Positions 48,756-59,810 of a stretch of DNA of 64,000 nt are shown here, one piece after another; the stretch's first letter is position 1, and every line of letters starts with the position of its first letter. Below the pieces are notes generated by a model. The model was not told the DNA's origin. It saw only the letters and a list, made by a program, of their open reading frames with translations, and did no database searches. Position numbers and translations under genes: made by a program. This stretch comes from Alistipes indistinctus YIT 12060 (lineage in GTDB: Bacteria > Bacteroidota > Bacteroidia > Bacteroidales > Rikenellaceae): positions 1,612,001 to 1,676,000 of the forward strand of contig NZ_CP102250.1 of the NCBI RefSeq assembly GCF_025144995.1, given 5' to 3'.

Positions 48756-49523
48756 GCCGACGACCAGAAATCCACAAACCTGCAGGAAGAATACATGGTC
48801 AACCGGAAGGGACTTAAAGCGCTGGGATACGACTCTCCCGAGGAGATCATAGGCAAGACCCTGCGGATCGAACACGAAGCGGTCGGCTACATCCCGCAGG
48901 GAGTCGTCTGCGGCGTGACCAACGACTTCAACTACACCAGCATGCGCGAGGAATCGATCCCTATGATCATCATGCAACGTCCGCTGTTCCTGCACAACAT
49001 CATGGTCCGGCTCAACCCCGACCAACCCAGGGCCCTGGAGACCTTCAACAACGTCTGGAAAGAGATTTTCCCCGATTACCCGGCCCGCTATGCGTTCATC
49101 GGCGACGTGTACGGCCAGATATTCCGCAACGAGCTGAACGCAGGGAAACTGGTCCGCATTTTCTCTTTGCTGTGCCTGCTGATCGCCAACCTCGGCCTGA
49201 TTATCTACATGGCCTTCATCATCAAGCTCCGGACCAAGGAGATCGGCATCCGCAAAGTGAACGGCGCCCGATCGGGCGAAATCATCCTGAGGCTGAACCG
49301 CAGCTTTATATGGCTGATCGTATCGGCGTTCGCGGTCGCCACTCCGGCCGCCTATATCATCCTGCAACGATGGCTCCGGAATTTCGCTTACAAAACGAGC
49401 CTCGACTGGTGGATTTTCGCCGGTGCCGGGATAACCGTCCTGCTCCTGTCCGGGATCGCCGTCTCGTGGCAAAGCTGGCACGCGGCAACCGCCAATCCGG
49501 CGAACGCGATCCTGCAAGAATAA
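48756..49523 (+). pseudogene. 3' fragment of an FtsX-type ABC permease (MacB-like)
   Basis: The frame opens after TAA 48750 and contains the periplasmic end and last three membrane helices of a MacB/FtsX permease: MVNRKGLKALGYDSPEEIIG, IFSLLCLLIANLGLIIYMAF, LRTKEIGIRKVNGARSGEII and WQSWHAATANPANAILQE. Full proteins of this kind are near 780-800 residues; only about 255 remain, so it is 5'-truncated and probably non-functional. DNA upstream belongs to the AraC promoter side, marking the deletion point. Confidence 0.75.
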
Positions 49524-49598: not shown

Positions 49599-50609
49599 TC
49601 AAAGTCGTTTTACGGACTTCCCCTCTATAATCTGCGCCGGGAGTTTGATCTGCTGGGGTACCGATTGCTTATCGCTCAACCGTTCCATCAGGATCTTCAC
49701 CGCGAGCTGGCTGATCTCTTTGGTCGGCTGCGAGATACGGGTGACGGCCGGATGCAGGAAATCCAGAAATAGGTTGTTGTCGAACGACAGGATCGAAACA
49801 TCGTCCGGGATTCGCAGCGAAGATTCCCCGATCGCCCGGATCGCCCCGAGCATAATGGTATTGCTCAGCGCGAAGATCGCGGTGGGCCGGGCGGGGCTCC
49901 CGATAGCCAGCTTGGTCTCCAGATATCCGTTGGTAATGGAGTAGTCGTTGCCGGCGATACGGCTCCGGGTGTCGAAACCCGACTCCCTCAAAGCATCGAT
50001 ATATCCTTTGACCCGCTCTTTCGAGGGCATCGAATGGGGAACGCCGCGGATGCAAAGAATCTCTTTGTGGCCGTTTTCGATCAGCAGTTTGACCCCATCC
50101 AGGGCTCCCCGGTAATTATCCGTGCAGATATAAGAAAGCGAAGTATCCTCAAAATAGCGGTCGATCAGGACGATGGGGGTTTGTTCGTCGATCTTTTCGA
50201 GGCTCTCCGGCCTCTCGCCGCACGGAACGAGTATAATGCCGTCGATGCTGCGGGTCAGCAGCGTATTGATACACTCGCTTTCGTTACCTTCATCCTCAAG
50301 CGTATCGAGCAATATCACGGTGTAGCCGTACCGCTTGGCTTCAAAGACGATTTCACTGGCGATCGTAGCGAAATAAGGGTTGTCGATACTGGGGATCAGC
50401 AGCCCGATCGTGTAGGTTTTATTGGTGCGCAAACTTTGCGCAAGAATACTCGGCTTGTAATCGATGCGTTTGGCTTCGTCCATTACCCGCTTGACGGTTT
50501 TCGCGCTGATGCGATATTGTTCGTGCTTGCCGTTCAACACCCTCGAAACAGTCGAAATCGAAACTCCAGTGCGTCTGGCAATACTTTTCAGGTTATTCTC
50601 TGGACTCAT
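49599..50609 (-). CDS. LacI-family repressor of the ribosyl-compound locus
   Basis: The 336-residue protein starts with a LacI helix-turn-helix (LKSIARRTGVSISTVSRVLN, residues 7-26) and hinge (KPSILAQSLRTNKTYTIGLL). The rest is a periplasmic-binding-like ligand domain ending GKSVKRL. It is transcribed divergently from ribokinase, so it most likely controls the rightward operon, with ribose, a ribose phosphate or a nucleoside-like effector (inference). A GCGCAA/TTGCGC inverted repeat lies in the shared promoter region. Confidence 0.9.
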   Translation of the reverse strand: MSPENNLKSIARRTGVSISTVSRVLNGKHEQYRISAKTVKRVMDEAKRIDYKPSILAQSLRTNKTYTIGLLIPSIDNPYFATIASEIVFEAKRYGYTVILLDTLEDEGNESECINTLLTRSIDGIILVPCGERPESLEKIDEQTPIVLIDRYFEDTSLSYICTDNYRGALDGVKLLIENGHKEILCIRGVPHSMPSKERVKGYIDALRESGFDTRSRIAGNDYSITNGYLETKLAIGSPARPTAIFALSNTIMLGAIRAIGESSLRIPDDVSILSFDNNLFLDFLHPAVTRISQPTKEISQLAVKILMERLSDKQSVPQQIKLPAQIIEGKSVKRL

Positions 50610-50719
50610 AGCCGGATAAAATTTTACCGAAGATAAGAGAATTATTTGGAATTATAAATATTTTTCTTTACCCTTGTGAAGAAGCACAATCGTTTGAGCA
50701 AATAAACAGACCTATTTTA

Positions 50720-50735
50720 GCGCAACAAATTGCGC
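50720..50735. promoter_or_regulatory. candidate LacI-type operator
   Basis: GCGCAA (50720-50725) and TTGCGC (50730-50735) form an inverted repeat around CAAA in the 178-bp gap between the divergent repressor and ribokinase genes. LacI-family operators are commonly CG-centred palindromes; this one is AT-centred, so confidence is moderate. Confidence 0.4.
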
Positions 50736-50787
50736 ACGAGCTGGCGATTCATTCACAAAAAAGCGGAAACGAATAATTACGGGCAGG

Positions 50788-51717
50788 ATGAAAAGCGAAA
50801 ACAAACATATAGTCGTGGTCGGAAGCATTAACACCGACATGACCGTGAAATCCGGCAAACTGCCGCGTCCGGGCGAAACGGTGCTCGGCGGCGTATTTTT
50901 CAAAAATCAGGGGGGCAAGGGCGCAAACCAGGCGGTAGCCGCCGCACGGCTGGGCGCCTCCGTGAGGATGATCGCCAAAGTGGGGAAAGACGCTTTCGGA
51001 GAGGAATCCGTCGCTTCGCTGGCCCGCGAGGGAGTCGATACCGCCGGTATCCTGACCGATGCGGAGCACCCCTCGGGCATCGCGATGATTTTGGTAGACG
51101 ACCGCGGGGAAAATATGATTTCGGTGGCTTCGGGAGCCAACCTCGCGCTGACGCCCGAAGAACTCGGCGCGGTCGAAGAGATCATCCGTTCGGCGGGCAT
51201 CGTCCTCATGCAACTCGAAATTCCGATGCCGGTGATCGAATACGTCGCCCGGATGGCGAAACAGCACGGCGCGACGGTAATCCTCAACCCTGCCCCGGCT
51301 CCGAAACAGCAACTCCCGCCCGAACTGCTGGCCCATGTGGACATCCTCATTCCGAACCAGACGGAAGCCGAACTGATCTCGGGCACCGCCGTGAACGATT
51401 ACGAAAGTGCGGCGGCGGCGGCCGGGAAAATCGGGCAAATGGGGGTCCGGACCGTAATCATCACCATGGGTGCCCACGGCGTGTTCGTTTACGACAGCGA
51501 GAGCGGAAATTCGGAAATAATCGTTGCGAAACGGGTCAAGGCGACCGACACCACAGCGGCCGGGGACTGCTTTTGCGGAGCGCTGTCCGTAGCGCTCAAC
51601 GAGGGCCGGCCGTTGAATGAGGCACTGGACTTCGCCAACCGTGCAGCGGCGATTTCCGTCACGCGCCGGGGAGCGCAACCGTCACTGCCTTACCTGCACG
51701 AAATGTCAACGCGATAA
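50788..51717 (+). CDS. rbsK: ribokinase (PfkB family)
   Basis: Ribokinase phosphorylates D-ribose at O5 for entry into the pentose phosphate pathway. Key motifs are VVVGSINTDMTVKSGKLPRP, GGKGANQAVAAARLG (first PfkB signature) and DTTAAGDCFCGALSVAL with the catalytic Asp. Length 309 and the ribokinase-type substrate loop fit RbsK better than fructokinases. It is the first gene of the rightward operon, 28 bp before the first ADP-ribosylglycohydrolase gene. Confidence 0.9.
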   Translation: MKSENKHIVVVGSINTDMTVKSGKLPRPGETVLGGVFFKNQGGKGANQAVAAARLGASVRMIAKVGKDAFGEESVASLAREGVDTAGILTDAEHPSGIAMILVDDRGENMISVASGANLALTPEELGAVEEIIRSAGIVLMQLEIPMPVIEYVARMAKQHGATVILNPAPAPKQQLPPELLAHVDILIPNQTEAELISGTAVNDYESAAAAAGKIGQMGVRTVIITMGAHGVFVYDSESGNSEIIVAKRVKATDTTAAGDCFCGALSVALNEGRPLNEALDFANRAAAISVTRRGAQPSLPYLHEMSTR

Positions 51718-51745
51718 AACATTAACCTAAAATAACAGAACCTTG

Positions 51746-53323
51746 ATGAAACGTTTACTTGTTTTTGTACCGCTGCTGGCGGTTTTCCTGTCGTCCTGTA
51801 ACCATTCCGGCAATTCCTCGCGGCTGCCCGAGAGTGTAACTATGTCGAAAGAGGTGCTTCTCGATAAAATCAAGGGAGGCTGGGCCGGCCAAACCATCGG
51901 ATGTTCCTACGGAGGGCCCACCGAATTCGACTTCAAGGGCGGCATGATTACGAATTACACCCCGATCCCGTGGCCGGACGGTTATATCAAATGGTGGTAC
52001 GAAACTTCCCCGAGTCTGTACGACGATGTGTATATGGACCTGACGTTCGTGGAGGTATTCGACCGTCTCGGCCTCGATGCCCCGGTGGATTCCATCGCGA
52101 TGGCTTTCGCAACGGCCGAATACCGCCTGTGGCACGCAAACCAGGCGGCCCGCTATAACATCCTGAACGGGATTATGCCCCCCGAGTCGGGACACTGGCT
52201 CAACAACCCCCATGCAGACGACCTCGACTTCCAGATCGAAGCCGATTTCGCAGGACTGATGAATCCAGGAATGCCCAACAGCGCATCCGAAATTTCGGAT
52301 AAGGTAGGACATATCATGTGCTACGGCGACGGTTGGTACGGCGGGGTTTATGTCGGGGCGATGTATGCGCTGGCTTTTGTCTCGGACGATATGGAGTTCG
52401 TGGTGACCGAGGCGCTGAAAACGATTCCCAAGGAGAGCAAATTCTACCAATGCATCAACGACGTGATCGGCTGGCACAAGCAATACCCCGACGACTGGCA
52501 GCAGACCTGGTTCGAAGCCACCCGGAAGTGGAACGAGGACGTGGGCTGTCCCAGCGGCGTATTCGGCTCTTTCAACATCGACGCCGTCATCAACAGCGCC
52601 TATATCGTAATCGGACTGCTGTACGGGGAAAAAGACTTCTTCAAAACGATGGATATCGCCACCCGCTGCGGCCAGGACTCGGACTGCAACCCGGCATCTG
52701 CGGCGGGCGTCCTGGGCACGATGATCGGATACAGCAACATCCCCGAATACTGGATGAAAAACCTGCGCGAGGTGGAAGATATGGATTTCGCCTTCACGCA
52801 TACCTCCCTGAATAAAGTCTACAACACCGGCTTCCGCCACGCGCTGGAGATGATTCAGCGGAACGGGGGCACGGTTTCAGGCGACGAAGTGACCATCAAA
52901 TGCCAGAATCCCGTCCCGGTACGCCTCGAACAATCTTTCGAAGGACATTATCCGGTAGAGGCCCGGGAGATGAATATACCGATGACGAAGTTGGACACGA
53001 TCGAATTCGAAGGCACCGGTGCCGTGTTCCGCGGGAAATTGCAGTGCGAGGACCAGAATTACGTAGCCGAAGTGGATTTCTATCTCGACGGGCAGTTCGT
53101 CGAGCAGGCCAAGCTGCCGGTTGCATTCCATGACCGCCGCCAGGAGATCTGCTACAAGTACCAACTCCCGAAAGGCAAACATAAGGCGACGCTCAAATGG
53201 AAAAATCCCAGGCCGGATGCGACTTTCGATTTCACCTACCTTTTGGTCTATTCGGATGCCCCGCGCGTAGATGACCACGCCCGCCTGCAGGCGGAGAGCA
53301 TGAACAAGCAACCCGTAAAATAG
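51746..53323 (+). CDS. lipoprotein ADP-ribosylglycohydrolase, copy 1
   Basis: ADP-ribosylglycohydrolases remove ADP-ribose from proteins or small molecules using two Mg ions. ATG 51746 gives a lipoprotein signal (MKRLLVFVPLLAVFLSSC). The family's first block is KIKGGWAGQTIGCSYGG, metal ligands are likely in LYDDVYMDLTF, and the late block CGQDSDCNPASAAGVLGTMI carries the conserved Asp pair. A C-terminal beta domain (~400-525) is an addition typical of secreted members. No acidic residues follow the lipid cysteine, so it probably faces the periplasm. A paralog lies 1.2 kb downstream. Confidence 0.85.
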   Translation: MKRLLVFVPLLAVFLSSCNHSGNSSRLPESVTMSKEVLLDKIKGGWAGQTIGCSYGGPTEFDFKGGMITNYTPIPWPDGYIKWWYETSPSLYDDVYMDLTFVEVFDRLGLDAPVDSIAMAFATAEYRLWHANQAARYNILNGIMPPESGHWLNNPHADDLDFQIEADFAGLMNPGMPNSASEISDKVGHIMCYGDGWYGGVYVGAMYALAFVSDDMEFVVTEALKTIPKESKFYQCINDVIGWHKQYPDDWQQTWFEATRKWNEDVGCPSGVFGSFNIDAVINSAYIVIGLLYGEKDFFKTMDIATRCGQDSDCNPASAAGVLGTMIGYSNIPEYWMKNLREVEDMDFAFTHTSLNKVYNTGFRHALEMIQRNGGTVSGDEVTIKCQNPVPVRLEQSFEGHYPVEAREMNIPMTKLDTIEFEGTGAVFRGKLQCEDQNYVAEVDFYLDGQFVEQAKLPVAFHDRRQEICYKYQLPKGKHKATLKWKNPRPDATFDFTYLLVYSDAPRVDDHARLQAESMNKQPVK

Positions 53324-53456
53324 TAAAGCCAGACTGTACAGCCATTTCGGGAAGCGTTCCGGGAGATGCCAGCAAGACCTGGTCATGCACGCTGTAGCAT
53401 CCGTCTCATGCAAACCGAACCGAACTTTCCGGGCTGCCAGATAAACGTCGCGTACC

Positions 53457-54359
53457 ATGAAAAACAGCATCAGAACGGCAGTCATCATCTGTTTCGCGTT
53501 TCTGGGAGCCCTGCCCCTGCGGGGGCAGGAGCTTTCCCTGGAAATCCCGCTGTGGGCGACCCCGCCCACGGAGAACAACGGGCTGACGGGCCCCGAAACG
53601 AAGGTAGGATCGAAAGGGTTCACGGCAAATGTTAGTTATCCGGTACTGAAGGTCTACCGGGCAGATGCGGCCCGGAACACCGGGACAGCCGTATTGATCG
53701 CACCCGGCGGCGGATACGGTGCGCTCGCGATGCGGCAGGAGGGCGACCCGTTCGCCGCGTGGCTGGCCGGACAGGGCATCACCGGCGTGGTGCTGAAATA
53801 CCGCATGCCCAACGGACACCACCGCATCCCGCTCGAAGATGCCAAACAGGGCATGAGGCTGATCCGGGAACACGCCCGGGAGTGGCAAATCGATACCGCC
53901 CGAATCGGCGTGATGGGTTTTTCGGCCGGCGGACACCTCGCCGCAACGCTGCTGACCCGCTATGAAGCGACCTCTCGCCCGGCTTTCGGCATCCTGTTCT
54001 ATCCGGTCATATCGTTCGACGACCGGTGGGCCCACCGGGGATCAGTCCAAAACCTGCTGGGAGCCGACTCGACCGAAACAATGAAAACCTACTATTCAAA
54101 CGAATTGCAAGTCACGCCGCAAACCCCGCCGACCCTGCTCCTGCTGTCGAATAACGACGGAACCGTAAAACCCCGGAACTCCATCATGTTTTATGAAGCC
54201 CTGCGGGAAAACCGGGTGCTTACCGCCCTGTATATCTTTCCTTCCGGCGGTCACGGTTGGGGCTTTCGGGATACTTTCGCCTACCACGAAATCATGAAGA
54301 CACTGATACTGCAATGGATCGCCGAATTATGGCCCGAACAGGCCAGTGCGCCAAAATAA
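53457..54359 (+). CDS. secreted alpha/beta-hydrolase esterase
   Basis: After a signal peptide (MKNSIRTAVIICFAFLGALP), this 300-residue enzyme shows the oxyanion HGG-like APGGGYGALAMRQEG, the nucleophile GFSAGGHLA near 162, an acid in LLSNNDGTVKP and the His in FPSGGHGWGF. It resembles BD-FAE-type or acetyl-xylan esterases of Bacteroidota. Sitting between two ADP-ribosylglycohydrolase genes, it may remove acyl groups, for example from O-acetyl-ADP-ribose or acylated ribosides (inference). Confidence 0.82.
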   Translation: MKNSIRTAVIICFAFLGALPLRGQELSLEIPLWATPPTENNGLTGPETKVGSKGFTANVSYPVLKVYRADAARNTGTAVLIAPGGGYGALAMRQEGDPFAAWLAGQGITGVVLKYRMPNGHHRIPLEDAKQGMRLIREHAREWQIDTARIGVMGFSAGGHLAATLLTRYEATSRPAFGILFYPVISFDDRWAHRGSVQNLLGADSTETMKTYYSNELQVTPQTPPTLLLLSNNDGTVKPRNSIMFYEALRENRVLTALYIFPSGGHGWGFRDTFAYHEIMKTLILQWIAELWPEQASAPK

Positions 54360-54497
54360 ACCCGCTGCGGGTTCGCCCCATAGCGGACTCCGCCGCCGAT
54401 ACGCAGTCCCTTTCGGCGATGCATTGCGACATACCGTCACAGCCTCCCCGGACGAAATGAGAACTTTTCAAATCATTCACTTAAACAGAAAAGCTTG

Positions 54498-56021
54498 ATG
54501 AAACGTTTACTTTTCCTCGTACCGTTACTGACGATTTATTTATCGTCCTGCCACCGTTCCGGTGGCAACGCTCAACTACCCGCAAATGTAACCCTGTCGA
54601 AAGAGGTGCTGCTCGACAAGATCAAGGGCGGCTGGGCCGGTCAGGCTATCGGTTGTACTTACGGAGGGCCGACCGAATTCAAGTACACGGGAAGCCTGAT
54701 CCCGGAGTATGTACAAATCGACTGGAACGATACCATAATGAAATTGTGGTACGAAAAAGCCCCCTGGCTATATGACGACGTATACATGGATGCCACCTTC
54801 GTGAAGGTTTTCGACAGCCTGGGACTGGATGCCCCGGTGGACGCCTTCGCAGATGCCTTCGCGCATGCAGGATATTCGCTGTGGCATGCCAACCAGGCAG
54901 CCCGCTACAACCTGCTCAACGGCATCAAGGCGCCTGAATCGGGCCACTGGAAGAATAATTTCCATGCAAACGACATCGACTTTCAGATCGAAGCCGACTT
55001 CGCCGGGCTGATGGCCCCGGGCATGGTCAATTCGGCAGTCGGCGTGTGCGATAAGATCGGACACATCATGAACTACGGGGACGGCTATTACGGAGGCGTC
55101 TACGTCGCCGCCATGTATGCGCTGGCCTTCGTTTCGGACGATGTAGAATTCGTCGTGAACGAAGCCTTGAAAACCATCCCGGCAGAAAGCGAATTCCACA
55201 AGTGCATCTCCGATGTGCTCCGTTTCCACAAACAGTATCCCGACGATTGGAAACAGACCTGGTTCGAAATCGAGAAAAAATGGGAGGAACATCACTTCTG
55301 TTCCGCATTCGATGCCTATAACATCGAGGCGAAAATCAACTCCGCTTACATCGTGATCGGGCTGCTCTACGGACAGGGCGATTTCACCCGGACAATGGAT
55401 ATCTCGATGCGTTGCGGACAGGATTCGGACTGCAATCCGGCCAGCGCCGCAGGTATCCTGGGTACGATGTTCGGATACAGCAAAATCCCGCAGCAATATC
55501 TCTCGGCACTGCAGCCGGTGGAGCGACTCGACCTAAGCCATACCGACGCCTCGCTCGCAGACCTCTACGAGATGAGTTACCGCCAGGCCCAGGGAATGAT
55601 CGAGCGGAATGGCGGCAGTGTAACGGGGGACAGTGTGACGATCGCGGTTCAGCAGCCGGTCGCCGCACCGCTGGAGGTCAGTTTCCCCGGTTTCTATCCG
55701 ACCAAAATAATCGGTTGGAGAAAGATTCAGGAACAGAAAATCGAGAATCTCGCCTTTACCGGCAAGGGTATCCTCATCAACGGACATGTGAGCGGCCCGG
55801 GCGATTATGTCGCCGAAGTAGAATTGATCATCGACGGCCAGGTGGCCGAACGGGCGAAACTTCCGGTCGGATACCTGGAGCGCCGCAACGAACTAGCCTA
55901 CACGTTCGACATTCCGAACGGGGAGCACACGGCGACCCTCAAATGGCTCAATCCGCAGAAGGATGCCAAGATGACCATCGGCAGCATCATTATCTACGGG
56001 GACGCCCCGCAAAAAAAATAA
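54498..56021 (+). CDS. lipoprotein ADP-ribosylglycohydrolase, copy 2
   Basis: This paralog of the gene at 51746 shares the signal (MKRLLFLVPLLTIYLSSC), the block KIKGGWAGQAIGCTYGG, the metal region LYDDVYMDATF and the late block CGQDSDCNPASAAGILGTMF. Even the nucleotides around both starts (TTGATGAAACGTTTACTT) agree, pointing to a tandem duplication followed by divergence, mainly in the C-terminal beta domain. The two copies may prefer different leaving groups or anomers. ATG 54498 is used; the preceding TTG is not needed. Confidence 0.85.
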   Translation: MKRLLFLVPLLTIYLSSCHRSGGNAQLPANVTLSKEVLLDKIKGGWAGQAIGCTYGGPTEFKYTGSLIPEYVQIDWNDTIMKLWYEKAPWLYDDVYMDATFVKVFDSLGLDAPVDAFADAFAHAGYSLWHANQAARYNLLNGIKAPESGHWKNNFHANDIDFQIEADFAGLMAPGMVNSAVGVCDKIGHIMNYGDGYYGGVYVAAMYALAFVSDDVEFVVNEALKTIPAESEFHKCISDVLRFHKQYPDDWKQTWFEIEKKWEEHHFCSAFDAYNIEAKINSAYIVIGLLYGQGDFTRTMDISMRCGQDSDCNPASAAGILGTMFGYSKIPQQYLSALQPVERLDLSHTDASLADLYEMSYRQAQGMIERNGGSVTGDSVTIAVQQPVAAPLEVSFPGFYPTKIIGWRKIQEQKIENLAFTGKGILINGHVSGPGDYVAEVELIIDGQVAERAKLPVGYLERRNELAYTFDIPNGEHTATLKWLNPQKDAKMTIGSIIIYGDAPQKK

Positions 56022-56114
56022 GCTCCCGGAATAGATCCGTAAAATTGCAAATGTGCGCCCCTTTCGCATGTCCGGCGGGGGACAAAAAGGAAAAACCAAC
56101 TTATAAATACAGCT

Positions 56115-57119
56115 ATGTACATCGTTCAGAGTTATCCGCTGGCCATCCTCTTCTGTTTTATCACGATGCTCTGTTGGGGATCGTGGGGCAATACACAAAA
56201 ACTTGCAGGCAAGACATGGCGCTACGAGCTATTCTATTGGGATTATGTAATCGGCATCCTGCTCTTCTCACTGGTGTGGGCATTGACTGTCGGCAGTTGC
56301 GGTACAGAAGGGCGGAAGTTTCTGCCCGATCTGGCGCAGGCCAGCTGGGGCAATATCGGCAGTGCTTTTGTGGGAGGCGTCGTCTTCAATGCGGCGAATA
56401 TCCTGCTTTCGGCCGCGATTGCCGTCGCAGGTATGGCCGTGGCCTTCCCGGTGGGAATCGGCCTTGCGCTCGTGCTGGGCGTACTGATCAACTACATCGG
56501 GTCGGCCAAAGGCGATCCGGTACTGCTGTTCGGAGGCGTAGCCCTGGTGATCGTGGCCATCGTACTCAACGGCATCGCTTACAAAATGATTTCCCGGGGC
56601 AACCGTTCGGCGGCATCGTCGCGGGGAATCGTCCTCGCATTGCTGGCCGGATTGCTGATGTCGTTCTTCTACCGCTTTGTAGCCGCCTCGATGGACCTGG
56701 ACAATTTTGTAACTCCGGCCGCCGGTAAAATGACGCCTTATTCGGCAATGGTTGTTTTTGCAGTCGGAATCTTCCTCAGCACGTTCATTTTCAACAGTAT
56801 CGCCATGAAACGTCCTGTAAGCGGAACTCCGGTTTCGATATCGGCTTACTTCAAAGGCGGATTCCCGATCCATCTGGTCGGGGTGCTGGGCGGAGTGATC
56901 TGGGGATTGGGCAACGCACTCAACCTGATTGCAGCCGGCAAAGCGGGTGCCGCCATCTCCTACGGTCTGGGGCAGGGTGCTACGTTGGTGGCGGCGCTAT
57001 GGGGCGTTTTTGTCTGGAAGGAGTTCCGTGGCGGCGGCCGCAGAGTGGACTGGCTCCTGGGATGGATGTTCGCGCTCTTTGTCGCAGGCATCGGGTTGAT
57101 TATCGCTGCAGGCAATTAA
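56115..57119 (+). CDS. GRP-type sugar permease (DMT superfamily)
   Basis: The 334-residue protein has about ten transmembrane helices and the family start AILFCFITMLCWGSWGNTQK. Glucose/ribose porters of the DMT superfamily import free monosaccharides by proton symport. Conserved blocks include GGVVFNAANILLSAAIAVAG, GIGLALVLGVLINYIG and SYGLGQGATLVAALWGVFVW. Given ribokinase in the operon, ribose is the most likely substrate (inference). It lies 94 bp after copy 2 of the glycohydrolase. Confidence 0.85.
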   Translation: MYIVQSYPLAILFCFITMLCWGSWGNTQKLAGKTWRYELFYWDYVIGILLFSLVWALTVGSCGTEGRKFLPDLAQASWGNIGSAFVGGVVFNAANILLSAAIAVAGMAVAFPVGIGLALVLGVLINYIGSAKGDPVLLFGGVALVIVAIVLNGIAYKMISRGNRSAASSRGIVLALLAGLLMSFFYRFVAASMDLDNFVTPAAGKMTPYSAMVVFAVGIFLSTFIFNSIAMKRPVSGTPVSISAYFKGGFPIHLVGVLGGVIWGLGNALNLIAAGKAGAAISYGLGQGATLVAALWGVFVWKEFRGGGRRVDWLLGWMFALFVAGIGLIIAAGN

Positions 57120-57176
57120 CACGTACGACGGACGCCAAAATAATTACAGCCTCGAAATCCAAACGAATTGCGTACA

Positions 57177-58286
57177 ATGACTAAAGATTCAAAATCCAAA
57201 ACCGAAAATAGGACCATCCCTGTAAACGACAACATGGACCGCCGGACATTCCTCAAACGTTCGGCTTTGGCCGGAATGGCAGGCTTAGCGGCTTCTGTCG
57301 CGCCTGTGAATATTCTCGCAAATACAAACATGCCCGAAAAACAGGAGCAATTCCCCGATCTTAAATTCAATTCGAACGGAAAATTCAAAATACTGCAATT
57401 GACCGATACGCACTATGTATCGGGCGATCCGAGATCCGAACGGGCACTGAAAAACGTGGCGGAAATGCTCGATACCGAGCGGCCCGATTTAGTCATCCAT
57501 ACAGGAGACGTCATATTCGGCAAACCGGCGGAAGCCTCCCTGCGTGAAATACTGAGTCTGATTGCCGACCGGAAAATCCCGTTCGCCGTCACGCTGGGGA
57601 ATCACGATGAGGAGTTCGGCAAGAACCGCCGGGAGGTGTTCGATATTATCAGAAGCATTCCCTGCAATATCAATACGCCGGTCAAAGAGATATACGGCGT
57701 ATCGAACGACATCATCACCCTCTCGTCCACTACCGACGATACCGTAAAATGGGTGTTCTACCTGTTCGATTCCAACCGCCACTCCAAACTGCCCGGAATC
57801 AAAGGATACGACTACATCCATTTCGATCAGATCGCCTGGTACCGGAACCACAGCCAGGCTTTCACAAAACGCAACGGAGGCACACCTGTTCCTTCATTGG
57901 CATTTTTCCATATCCCGCTGCCCGAATACAACTATGCCACCCGGCTGGACACGCGCCGCGTGATGAAAGGCAACTTCGGAGAAGAACCCTATTCCCCGCA
58001 TGTAAATTCGGGTCTGTTCGTATCCCTGAAAGAGATGGGGGACGTACAGGCTATCCTGTGCGGACATGACCACGACAACGATTATGCGATGCAGTGGAAC
58101 GGCATGTTCCTGATGTTCGGCCGTTTCGGCGGTTGCGACACGGTATACAACGACCTGAAACCCAGCGGAGCCCGGGTCATCGAACTGACCGAAGGCGAAC
58201 CAGGTTTCCGCTCGTGGATCCGGATTTACGGCGAAGGAATCACACAGGATTTAAACTATCCGGAAGATTTCAAAACCGTATTGTAA
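57177..58286 (+). CDS. Tat-exported calcineurin-like metallophosphoesterase
   Basis: An N-terminal extension precedes a twin-arginine signal (MDRRTFLKRSALAGMAGLAA, from about residue 20). The catalytic domain contains the metal motifs LTDTHYVSGD, VIHTGDVIFG, TLGNHDEEFG, FFHIPLPEYN and LCGHDHDNDY, the complete set for a dimetal phosphoesterase. It could split ADP-ribose, nucleotides or other phosphodiesters before glycohydrolase action. Tat export implies it folds with metal in the cytoplasm. It ends the operon before a hairpin terminator. Confidence 0.88.
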   Translation: MTKDSKSKTENRTIPVNDNMDRRTFLKRSALAGMAGLAASVAPVNILANTNMPEKQEQFPDLKFNSNGKFKILQLTDTHYVSGDPRSERALKNVAEMLDTERPDLVIHTGDVIFGKPAEASLREILSLIADRKIPFAVTLGNHDEEFGKNRREVFDIIRSIPCNINTPVKEIYGVSNDIITLSSTTDDTVKWVFYLFDSNRHSKLPGIKGYDYIHFDQIAWYRNHSQAFTKRNGGTPVPSLAFFHIPLPEYNYATRLDTRRVMKGNFGEEPYSPHVNSGLFVSLKEMGDVQAILCGHDHDNDYAMQWNGMFLMFGRFGGCDTVYNDLKPSGARVIELTEGEPGFRSWIRIYGEGITQDLNYPEDFKTVL

Positions 58287-58382: not shown

Positions 58383-59552
58383 TCATTTGATTTTCAGGCC
58401 GGGAATCAACGACCGTGTATCGACCAGCGAGAGCGACTGCACCATATCGAGCGTACCCTGTTTGTATTTTCGAAAATGAGGTGTGGCAATATGCGTTTGA
58501 TAAGCGGCTTCATCGGCATAAATTTCGAGAATGGTAATCTCATTCGGCCGTTCTTTGTCAGCTACGGCATAAAGAGCCAATACACCCGGTTCCAACCGCA
58601 TCGAGGCCTCGATCTCCTCTTCGAGGTAAACGTTGTATTCGGCCAGCCGTTCCGGATCGACAGTGATCCGCGACAACCGGACTTTGTTGTCCCGGCTTGG
58701 AGACGCCTGCACCGGTTTGGGCAGTTGATCGGCCGATTTTAGCGCATCCAGCGCCTTTGCCGCGGGTGGCAGCCCTATATAAGGCATGCACTGTATAACT
58801 GCAGCAGCCAGTATCTCGGGAGTATTCCCGAGTTCCAGGTTGCCGGAAACATGCGAACGAAGCAGACCATCGGCCTCCAACGTGGTAAGCATACAGAACA
58901 CCAGTAATTCACGCGTTTTCAAATCGAGGCCCTGCCGGGTATAAAAATCCCCGAAGCAGAACCCGGTCAGCAAACGCGCCACATCTCCACCCACGCCGCC
59001 CGGCACGTATGTTGTCTTTTGCCCGGCCTCATCGCCATAAAGCCGATGTTGGATGGTCGCCCCCCGCCGGTAACGATCCGCCTCGGTAACCGTCCCCTGT
59101 GCTTCCAACGGCAGAGAGATACCCCGCTCCCGGAATACTTCATTGACAACGCTGACGGCATTCAGTGTCTTCGGAAAACCGACAAACGGTGCGCACTGAT
59201 AGACTGCCTCACGCAGTTCGACGGGCGTGACACCCACCGTGAGAGCTGCTGCTGCATGGGCTTTGAGCTGGGGCAGGGTCTGCATCACCGACAGCACCGT
59301 ACAAGTAATCAGTTCGCGGGTCTTCAGGTCGAGATCGCCCACAGCGAAAACTTCCCCGAAAATGTATTTCTGGAGAATATCCATCAACTCCGGATCCGTC
59401 CCCGTTCCCGTAAGCGCCTCACCCCCGAACAGGGCGGTATAGTTTTTCCTGCAAAGCTCGATTCTGTCCATAGTATCCTCTTTTTGAACTTCCTGCGCGA
59501 CAGCCGGCCAAGTAAAGACAGCCAGCAAAAACATAATCAATCCTCTTTTCAT
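58383..59552 (-). CDS. secreted fusion of two carboxymuconolactone decarboxylase domains and an ABM domain
   Basis: ATG 59552 starts a signal peptide (MKRGLIMFLLAVFTWPAVAQ). Two CMD/AhpD-like repeats follow: LKTRELITCTVLSVMQTLPQ near 75 and LKTRELLVFCMLTTLEADGL near 213, each with a cysteine but no CxxC. The last ~95 residues (VRLSRITVDPERLAEYNVYL) form an antibiotic-biosynthesis-monooxygenase-like dimeric alpha-beta barrel. The fusion suggests a periplasmic redox or quinone-handling enzyme; the substrate is unknown. It is convergent with the upstream operon. Confidence 0.82.
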   Translation of the reverse strand: MKRGLIMFLLAVFTWPAVAQEVQKEDTMDRIELCRKNYTALFGGEALTGTGTDPELMDILQKYIFGEVFAVGDLDLKTRELITCTVLSVMQTLPQLKAHAAAALTVGVTPVELREAVYQCAPFVGFPKTLNAVSVVNEVFRERGISLPLEAQGTVTEADRYRRGATIQHRLYGDEAGQKTTYVPGGVGGDVARLLTGFCFGDFYTRQGLDLKTRELLVFCMLTTLEADGLLRSHVSGNLELGNTPEILAAAVIQCMPYIGLPPAAKALDALKSADQLPKPVQASPSRDNKVRLSRITVDPERLAEYNVYLEEEIEASMRLEPGVLALYAVADKERPNEITILEIYADEAAYQTHIATPHFRKYKQGTLDMVQSLSLVDTRSLIPGLKIK

Positions 59553-59810
59553 CGCTTCTCGATTTGATGCCTGACTATTCGACGACATTATTGAATAAAC
59601 CTCTTTTCCCACTCCCGGGCAGGTTCTAATTCTTCTCCCGTACAAAAATAGAACATCCCGGTAAACGGATTTGTATATAAGTTACAGATAAATATACCCC
59701 AATTCAGGTTTGTACAGGCGTTTGCAGTTCCACCCGCCGGTGCGACCAACTATATCCGTCTCAAAATGCTTTCTTATAAGGGTCCTGAACCTTTTTCCAA
59801 AGAAAAACCC

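What the first reader, a model, noticed from the sequence alone, without database searches (positions are those of the whole stretch)
49599..58286. Possible ADP-ribose / ribosyl-compound scavenging operon
A LacI repressor diverges from an operon encoding ribokinase, two lipoprotein ADP-ribosylglycohydrolases with an esterase between them, a GRP-type sugar permease and a Tat-exported metallophosphoesterase. Read as a pathway: the phosphoesterase opens or dephosphorylates ADP-ribose-like compounds, the esterase removes acyl groups, the glycohydrolases free ribose, the permease imports it and ribokinase commits it. Ribose-utilisation (rus) loci in Bacteroides share some of these functions, but this set lacks SusC/SusD and pairs two glycohydrolases with a Tat phosphoesterase. 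Substrate and order are inference.
Basis: partly seen in the sequence, partly recalled or inferred. Interest (0 to 1): 0.75.

Follow-up and report, generated by a model that had tools for sequence, protein, structure and literature searches.

The report
Ribose-scavenging operon with unusual ribose-cutting enzymes
A relative of the gut bacterium Alistipes carries a regulated gene set that most likely cuts ribose off scavenged molecules and imports it, using enzymes labelled ADP-ribosylglycohydrolases whose active-site motif differs from that of the known ones.

Summary
In detail: a LacI-family regulator diverges from rbsK, two lipoproteins of Pfam ADP_ribosyl_GH with an esterase between them, a permease and a Tat-type metallophosphoesterase. 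Ribose scavenging is well supported: near relatives of GH1 a ribokinase stands in 47 and this permease in 45 of 79 named loci, and from the permease side a ribokinase is directly adjacent in 39 of 68 loci. SusC/SusD and nucleoside hydrolases recur there, so this is a rus-like locus, here without SusC/SusD. The exact five-gene set occurs in none of the 79 named loci. ADP-ribose as substrate is not supported: the enzymes have the ARH/DraG fold, but two residues of the ARH metal motif are replaced (Y/F in 44 of 44, C in 42 of 44) and the GNGxxMR loop is absent (0 of 106). Best reading: ribosides are cut in the periplasm by a divergent ARH-fold family, and ribose is imported and phosphorylated. 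Activity and substrate are untested. A new variant of a known kind; the exported enzyme family is the interesting part.

The parts
49599..50609 (-). LacI-family regulator (RbsR/PurR/CytR-like), divergent from the operon
   Evidence: PF00356, PF13377; best NCBIfam RbsR NF047341 222.3 bits, below its cut-off of 382; relatives of it in 5 of the 146 loci compared (L044 57%, L191 52%, L185 45%, L180 43%, L144 40%)
50720..50735 (.). candidate operator, palindrome GCGCAA-N4-TTGCGC, 52 bases before rbsK (weak)
   Evidence: a 6+6 palindrome in a region of this size is common by chance (2331 of 5000 shuffles)
50788..51717 (+). rbsK, ribokinase
   Evidence: TIGR02152 362.1 bits over cut-off 299.65; the genome's only strong match, the other being a 29% partial hit at 1e-7
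51746..53323 (+). GH1, ARH-fold lipoprotein (ADP_ribosyl_GH domain plus C-terminal beta-rich part)
   Evidence: PF03747; lipobox LSSC read from the sequence; AlphaFold2 pLDDT 91.3; ARH/DraG fold
53457..54359 (+). alpha/beta-hydrolase esterase with signal-peptide-like start (acetyl-xylan/sugar-ester type), GFSAGG motif
   Evidence: PF20434; AxeA1 NF042968 253.3 bits, below cut-off 700; solved relatives 7dwc and 6a6o
54498..56021 (+). GH2, second ARH-fold lipoprotein, 61% identical to GH1
   Evidence: PF03747; alignment; similarity with GH1 runs a short way upstream of the start codon
56115..57119 (+). permease (Ureide_permease better than Sugar_transport)
   Evidence: ribokinase directly adjacent in 39 of 68 permease loci
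57168..58286 (+). Tat-type metallophosphoesterase (RR motif after ATG 57235)
   Evidence: PF00149; DxH, GD, GNHD and GHDH motifs invariant in 8 aligned sequences; AlphaFold2 pLDDT 78.3

Best explanation
A LacI-regulated ribose-scavenging operon of the rus-like kind, without SusC/SusD. Small ribosyl compounds enter the periplasm. The Tat-exported phosphoesterase removes or opens phosphate groups and the esterase removes acyl groups. The two ARH-fold lipoproteins hydrolyse the ribosyl bond, the permease imports free ribose, and ribokinase makes ribose 5-phosphate. Shown here: gene content, recurrence of the rbsK-permease-glycohydrolase core, export signals by sequence motif, ARH fold, and the divergent active-site motif. 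Inferred: that the glycohydrolases are active, that their product is ribose, the roles and order of phosphoesterase and esterase, and that the regulator senses ribose or its phosphate. The substrate is more likely a nucleoside-like or other riboside than ADP-ribose itself.
For: rbsK passes the ribokinase cut-off and is the genome's only strong match. GH side, within 6 kb: ribokinase in 47, permease in 45, SusC in 18, nucleoside hydrolase in 15 of 79 named loci; GH directly beside permease or rbsK on one strand in 46 of the 80 loci examined. Permease side: ribokinase within 7 kb in 48, directly adjacent in 39, GH in 22, nucleoside hydrolase in 17 of 68 loci. The genome has no PF01156 nucleoside hydrolase and both of its PF03747 proteins are here. 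ARH fold; E61, D95, D312 and D314 invariant in 44 of 44. LacI, rbsK, SusC, GH, esterase and permease stand together in a same-family genome (L044). In B. thetaiotaomicron the RusR module BT2803-2809 is most active on ribose and RusT is proposed to carry free ribose (PMC12596196, passages).
Against: No expression or enzyme data. The complete set occurs in none of 79 named loci. The family is patchy: GH1 relatives in 16 of 61 related genomes, own included, and in only 3 of 8 other same-genus genomes. 17 of 79 named loci have none of rbsK, permease, SusC or nucleoside hydrolase, some cut by contig ends. In two same-genus genomes a GH stands with the phosphoesterase but without rbsK or permease beside it (L033/L066 and L035/L055). 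An 'ADP-ribosylglycohydrolase family protein' of unknown subfamily is reported in an iron-regulated hemin-uptake locus of Prevotella intermedia (PMC10434189, passage). The enzymes could be inactive: single metal-ligand mutants of ARH1 and ARH3 are (PMC6309922, passage). RusT of B. thetaiotaomicron was not compared with this permease.
Confidence: 0.66

Rival explanations
1. True ADP-ribose scavenging: the phosphoesterase splits ADP-ribose-like compounds and the glycohydrolases free ribose from ADP-ribosyl or O-acetyl-ADP-ribosyl compounds.
For: ARH/DraG fold, TM up to about 0.7 to ARH3 on the target length; conserved E61 and motif aspartates; phosphoesterase and esterase recur beside glycohydrolases (7 and 4 of 79); a dimetal phosphatase, 2nxf, is the sixth Foldseek match of the phosphoesterase (that it is an ADP-ribose/CDP-alcohol diphosphatase is recalled).
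Against: The ARH metal motif E..[T/S]DDT..D[S/T]D[T/S] (PMC6309922, passage) is changed at two T/S positions; GNGxxMR loop in 0 of 106 relatives against 9 of 11 canonical ones; sequence matches to solved ADP-ribosyl hydrolases are weak; nucleoside hydrolases share the loci in relatives.
Confidence: 0.13
2. A glycan-side system: the ARH-fold enzymes cut a furanoside in an acylated oligosaccharide, with esterases and other glycosidases, and ribose or a related pentose is the product.
For: Carbohydrate-type esterase here; PF00756 esterases, sulfatase, AXE1, alpha-L-fucosidase, GH2- and GH9-type enzymes beside some relatives; SusC and SusD in 18 and 14 of 79 loci.
Against: Such enzymes are infrequent in these loci (sulfatase 4, PF00756 esterase 5, this esterase 4 of 79) and no polysaccharide-degrading enzyme was found among the seven genes.
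Confidence: 0.15
3. The ARH-fold lipoproteins are immunity proteins that reverse ADP-ribosylation by rival bacterial toxins and sit by chance beside sugar genes.
For: The best fold and profile match, 6dre, is from an ADP-ribosyltransferase toxin/immunity pair.
Against: Repeated association with rbsK and permease and the altered metal motif.
Confidence: 0.03

Closest known systems
rus, ribose-utilisation system of Bacteroides thetaiotaomicron (BT2803-2809, RusR)
   Same: Ribokinase, a DMT-annotated permease and ribosyl-releasing enzymes in one regulated cluster; B. theta gene list from PMC10434189 (table passage), RusR and RusT from PMC12596196 (passages)
   Different: No SusC/SusD seen, no nucleoside hydrolase, LacI regulator, two ARH-fold lipoproteins, esterase and Tat phosphoesterase. 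The primary paper (Glowacki 2020) is not held; I recall that it reports many rus variants, ADP-ribosylglycohydrolases among them
ARH/DraG (ADP-ribosyl)hydrolases: ARH1, ARH3, DraG, MJ1187, the immunity protein of 6dre
   Same: Fold, conserved Glu and motif aspartates
   Different: Two T/S metal-motif positions replaced, GNGxxMR loop missing, lipoprotein signal, extra C-terminal beta-rich part
E. coli yegTUV (predicted nucleoside symporter, ADP-ribosylglycohydrolase-like YegU, sugar kinase YegV)
   Same: Transporter, ADP-ribosylglycohydrolase-like protein and sugar kinase in one operon (PMC10819704, passages)
   Different: Repressed by the GntR-family YegW/GgaR and linked there to ADP-glucose and glycogen; YegU function unknown

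Membership tests
rus (canonical ribose-utilisation system) | Dedicated ribokinase | tested here: met
   TIGR02152 over cut-off
rus (canonical ribose-utilisation system) | RusT-type permease | tested here: inconclusive
   Permease family directly adjacent to ribokinase in 39 of 68 loci; BT2809 itself was not compared
rus (canonical ribose-utilisation system) | SusC/SusD pair | tested here: not met
   None seen among the ORFs of 46.5-61.5 kb, ten of which were scanned; present in 18 and 14 of 79 related loci
rus (canonical ribose-utilisation system) | Nucleoside hydrolase | tested here: not met
   No PF01156 match in the whole genome
rus (canonical ribose-utilisation system) | RusR-type regulator | tested here: not met
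   LacI-family regulator instead; a 500-residue family without Pfam match, c4, is near in 18 of 79 related loci (that c4 is RusR-like is inference)
rus (canonical ribose-utilisation system) | Induction by ribose | not testable with these tools
   Needs transcript data
ARH/DraG (ADP-ribosyl)hydrolase | All-alpha ARH fold | tested here: met
   The 50 Foldseek matches listed are ARH/DraG-type entries except the chloroplast motor chains 8xks_Q and 8xqw_G; TM on target length 0.52-0.74
ARH/DraG (ADP-ribosyl)hydrolase | Metal motif E..[T/S]DDT..D[S/T]D[T/S] | tested here: not met
   E and Asp kept; Y/F in 44 of 44 and C in 42 of 44 at two T/S positions (motif from PMC6309922, passage)
ARH/DraG (ADP-ribosyl)hydrolase | GNGxxMR loop seen in canonical bacterial members | tested here: not met
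   9 of 11 canonical sequences, 0 of 106 of this family, not in GH1 or GH2
ARH/DraG (ADP-ribosyl)hydrolase | Hydrolysis of alpha-linked ADP-ribose | not testable with these tools
   Needs enzyme assay
GRP/RhaT sugar-proton symporters | NCBIfam TIGR00776 cut-off | tested here: not met
   46.3 bits against 319.6; PF06800 passes at 31.0 against 26.3, PF07168 at 84.8 against 27

The most novel reading that the evidence does not exclude
The lipoproteins are an undescribed exported ribosidase family: an ARH fold with a rebuilt metal site (Y-D-D and D-x-D-C-N, so perhaps a thiol-ligated metal other than Mg) that frees ribose from a class of ribosides that nucleoside hydrolases do not handle. It would serve across Bacteroidota as an interchangeable module of ribose-scavenging loci.
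Probability: 0.45. Interest if true: 0.65.

Novelty: new variant of a known kind. Interest (0 to 1): 0.45.

Why it matters
Ribose from nucleosides and other ribosides is a contested gut nutrient. If this reading holds, a set of proteins now named ADP-ribosylglycohydrolase in Bacteroidota are mislabelled sugar-releasing enzymes with a different metal site. Their association with ribokinase and permease gives a direct way to find the substrate.

Tried and rejected
Operator search: two palindromes with half-site GCGCAA lie at 50427-50441 and 50720-50735, 2 in the window against 0.04 expected and 3 places in the genome, control 0. The third lies in a 127-residue ORF of a region with integrase- and mobilisation-like genes (functions judged by eye). 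The first palindrome falls in the lacI codons for about AQSLR, which I recall as a conserved hinge of the family, so it may be coding only. Two palindromes sharing a half-site arose in 18 of 5000 shuffles, at least one palindrome in 2331 of 5000. The pattern was chosen after seeing it, so I keep only the intergenic one, as a weak candidate. Five relatives with LacI show other palindromes.

Phosphoesterase fold search: many unrelated phosphoesterases match, no specificity. Promoter-like sites were 10 against a shuffle mean of 6.1 and terminator-like sites 11 against 10.3, no use. A near-identity plasmid search gave no match. Whether GH2 is the sister of GH1 could not be settled: GH2 has a long end branch and no starred set holds it, though shared leader DNA argues for local duplication. 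Literature searches in which I saw nothing on this enzyme subfamily: (listings; passages of six papers looked at). The try at finding a genome with the exact B. theta rus order, to test RusT homology, failed.

Rows dropped and partial sets: L070 had no called GH (79 of 80 counted); L179 and L295 had no called permease (68 of 70). Permease loci fetched: all 10 foreign match rows, 40 of 62 foreign rows (fragments, rows at contig ends, some repeats and two places fetched before were left out), 20 of 26 rows. Clusters are single-linkage; in the permease-side counts some nucleoside hydrolases were called by a short motif. The tree left out L033-L035 and GH rows outside 450-580 residues (97 rows).
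Full report
What is there. Seven open genes lie at 49599-58286: a LacI-family regulator on the minus strand and, on the plus strand, rbsK, an ADP_ribosyl_GH lipoprotein (GH1), an esterase, a second such lipoprotein (GH2), a permease and a metallophosphoesterase. From the coordinates the gaps are 28, 133, 138, 93 and 48 bases, and the simple scan lists no plus-strand terminator-like site in them. Both lipoproteins carry an LSSC lipobox and no acidic residue in the next five positions, which suggests a periplasmic rather than surface position (the acidic surface-export signal is recalled knowledge). Among 106 related GH proteins a crude pattern finds a lipobox in 66, with no acidic residue in the next positions in 51 of these and one in 15. 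The phosphoesterase has an RR-type leader. The genome is a relative of Alistipes: a same-genus genome, G001, has a contig of the same length as the record of an uncultured Alistipes (116575 bases).

Ribose is the common thread. The kinase passes the ribokinase cut-off and is the genome's only strong match; the second is a 29% partial hit. Of 79 named loci around relatives of GH1, within 6 kb, 47 have a ribokinase, 45 this permease, 18 SusC, 14 SusD, 18 a 500-residue family without Pfam match (c4), 15 a nucleoside hydrolase, 7 the phosphoesterase, 5 a PF00756 esterase, 4 the esterase of this cluster and 4 a sulfatase (families named). Of the 39 loci with 6 kb on both sides, 26 have the ribokinase and 24 the permease. 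The permease is itself patchy: 10 of 296 genomes drawn across the phylum and 42 of 295 of the order, own genome counted in both, and 25 of 151 in the family of Phocaeicola coprophilus. In 68 permease loci a ribokinase is within 7 kb in 48 and directly adjacent in 39; GH is there in 22, a nucleoside hydrolase in 17, both in 8. So permease plus ribokinase is the core, and the ribosyl-releasing enzyme varies. The window is one variant. Its genome has no PF01156 nucleoside hydrolase and only these two PF03747 proteins, so GH1 and GH2 may take that role.

What is not conserved. GH1 relatives occur in 16 of 61 related genomes, own included, and in 3 of 8 other genomes of the genus. No named locus of 79 has rbsK, glycohydrolase, esterase, permease and phosphoesterase together, and none has an esterase between two glycohydrolases; 6 of 79 have two or more glycohydrolases. 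In the same-genus genomes G001 and G004 the parts are split: glycohydrolase, rbsK and permease (and in G001 the esterase) behind a divergent c4 gene in one place, and another glycohydrolase with the phosphoesterase in another. The window joins what those relatives keep apart.

Relation to rus. The order c4, SusC, SusD, RBSK, GH, PERM in four Prevotellaceae bins (L068, L071, L072, L081) and a Tannerellaceae bin (L095) links this set to the rus loci of Bacteroides, in which the RusR module is BT2803-2809 and RusT is proposed to import free ribose (PMC12596196, passages); a B. theta table row lists ribokinase, TonB receptor, SusD, DUF4969, nucleoside hydrolase and a DMT permease (PMC10434189, passage). 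The window has LacI and lacks nucleoside hydrolase, c4 family and, as far as scanned, SusC/SusD. LacI in that place is not unique: L044 (same family) has LacI, rbsK, SusC, GH, esterase and permease; L144, L180, L185 and L191 also have it and L293 was labelled so. I therefore call it rus-like in working, not a canonical rus member.

The glycohydrolases. GH1 folds with high confidence (pLDDT 91.3, pTM 0.89) as an ARH/DraG domain with a C-terminal beta-rich part. The 50 solved matches listed are ARH3, ARH1, DraG, 6dre and related entries at 10-15% identity, apart from two chloroplast motor chains. Characterised ARHs hold two Mg ions with E..[T/S]DDT..D[S/T]D[T/S], and mutating even one ligand abolished activity in ARH1 and ARH3 (PMC6309922, passages). 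In 44 aligned sequences E61 is kept in 44, D94 in 42, D95 in 44, D312 in 44 and D314 in 44, but position 93 is Y or F in 44 of 44 and position 315 is C in 42 (N in 2). The two exceptions at D94 and C315 (first copies of L108 and L127) are strongly diverged, 24-25% identical to GH1. Eleven canonical PF03747 sequences from the same order keep an [S/T]DD[S/T] motif and, in 9 of 11, the GNGxxMR loop, which is in 0 of 106 of this family. The acidic residues stay while the two T/S positions change, so I read the metal site as rebuilt rather than lost; that is inference. GH2 keeps these motifs although it evolves fast (end branch 1.2 against a median of 0.27). Similar leader DNA just upstream of both start codons suggests local duplication. 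Sets of three GH paralogues with two PF00756 esterases and the permease recur in one order in ten other loci (L041, L108, L127; L186, L189, L190, L194, L199, L200; L287).

Mechanism most likely. Phosphate and acyl groups are trimmed in the periplasm, the ribosyl bond is cut by GH1/GH2, ribose enters through the permease, and ribokinase traps it; LacI represses until ribose or its phosphate appears. The trimming steps and the regulator's signal rest on family knowledge; the cutting step rests on fold, export signals and gene neighbourhood; the last two steps on family and strong neighbourhood. ADP-ribose itself is less likely than other ribosides for the reasons above, but not excluded.

What is new. 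The operon is a variant of a described kind of locus. I saw no paper on this exported ARH-fold subfamily in searches, but the main rus paper is not in the library, and I recall that it mentions ADP-ribosylglycohydrolases in rus variants.

Noticed in passing
48795-49523: A 242-residue ORF matching only the C-terminal part of ADOP-type/FtsX permeases, with no upstream half recognised by eye among the ORFs of 50 residues or more listed before it: looks like a gene remnant.
   Followed up: partly
58383-59645: A convergent gene with carboxymuconolactone-decarboxylase (two stretches) and ABM domains, downstream of the operon on the other strand.
   Followed up: no
L127:6288-15733 and similar loci L041, L108: Three consecutive ARH-fold paralogues followed by two PF00756 esterases and the permease, in conserved order; the first paralogue of L127 and L108 is strongly diverged.
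   Followed up: partly
L056:7371-8894 (cluster c4): A family of about 500 residues without any Pfam match, usually divergent from the operon and near in 18 of 79 loci: a likely RusR-type regulator.
   Followed up: partly
L075:7294-8043 (cluster c10): A family of about 250 residues without Pfam match that follows the permease or glycohydrolase in seven loci, ahead of GtrA-like and glycosyltransferase genes in several.
   Followed up: no
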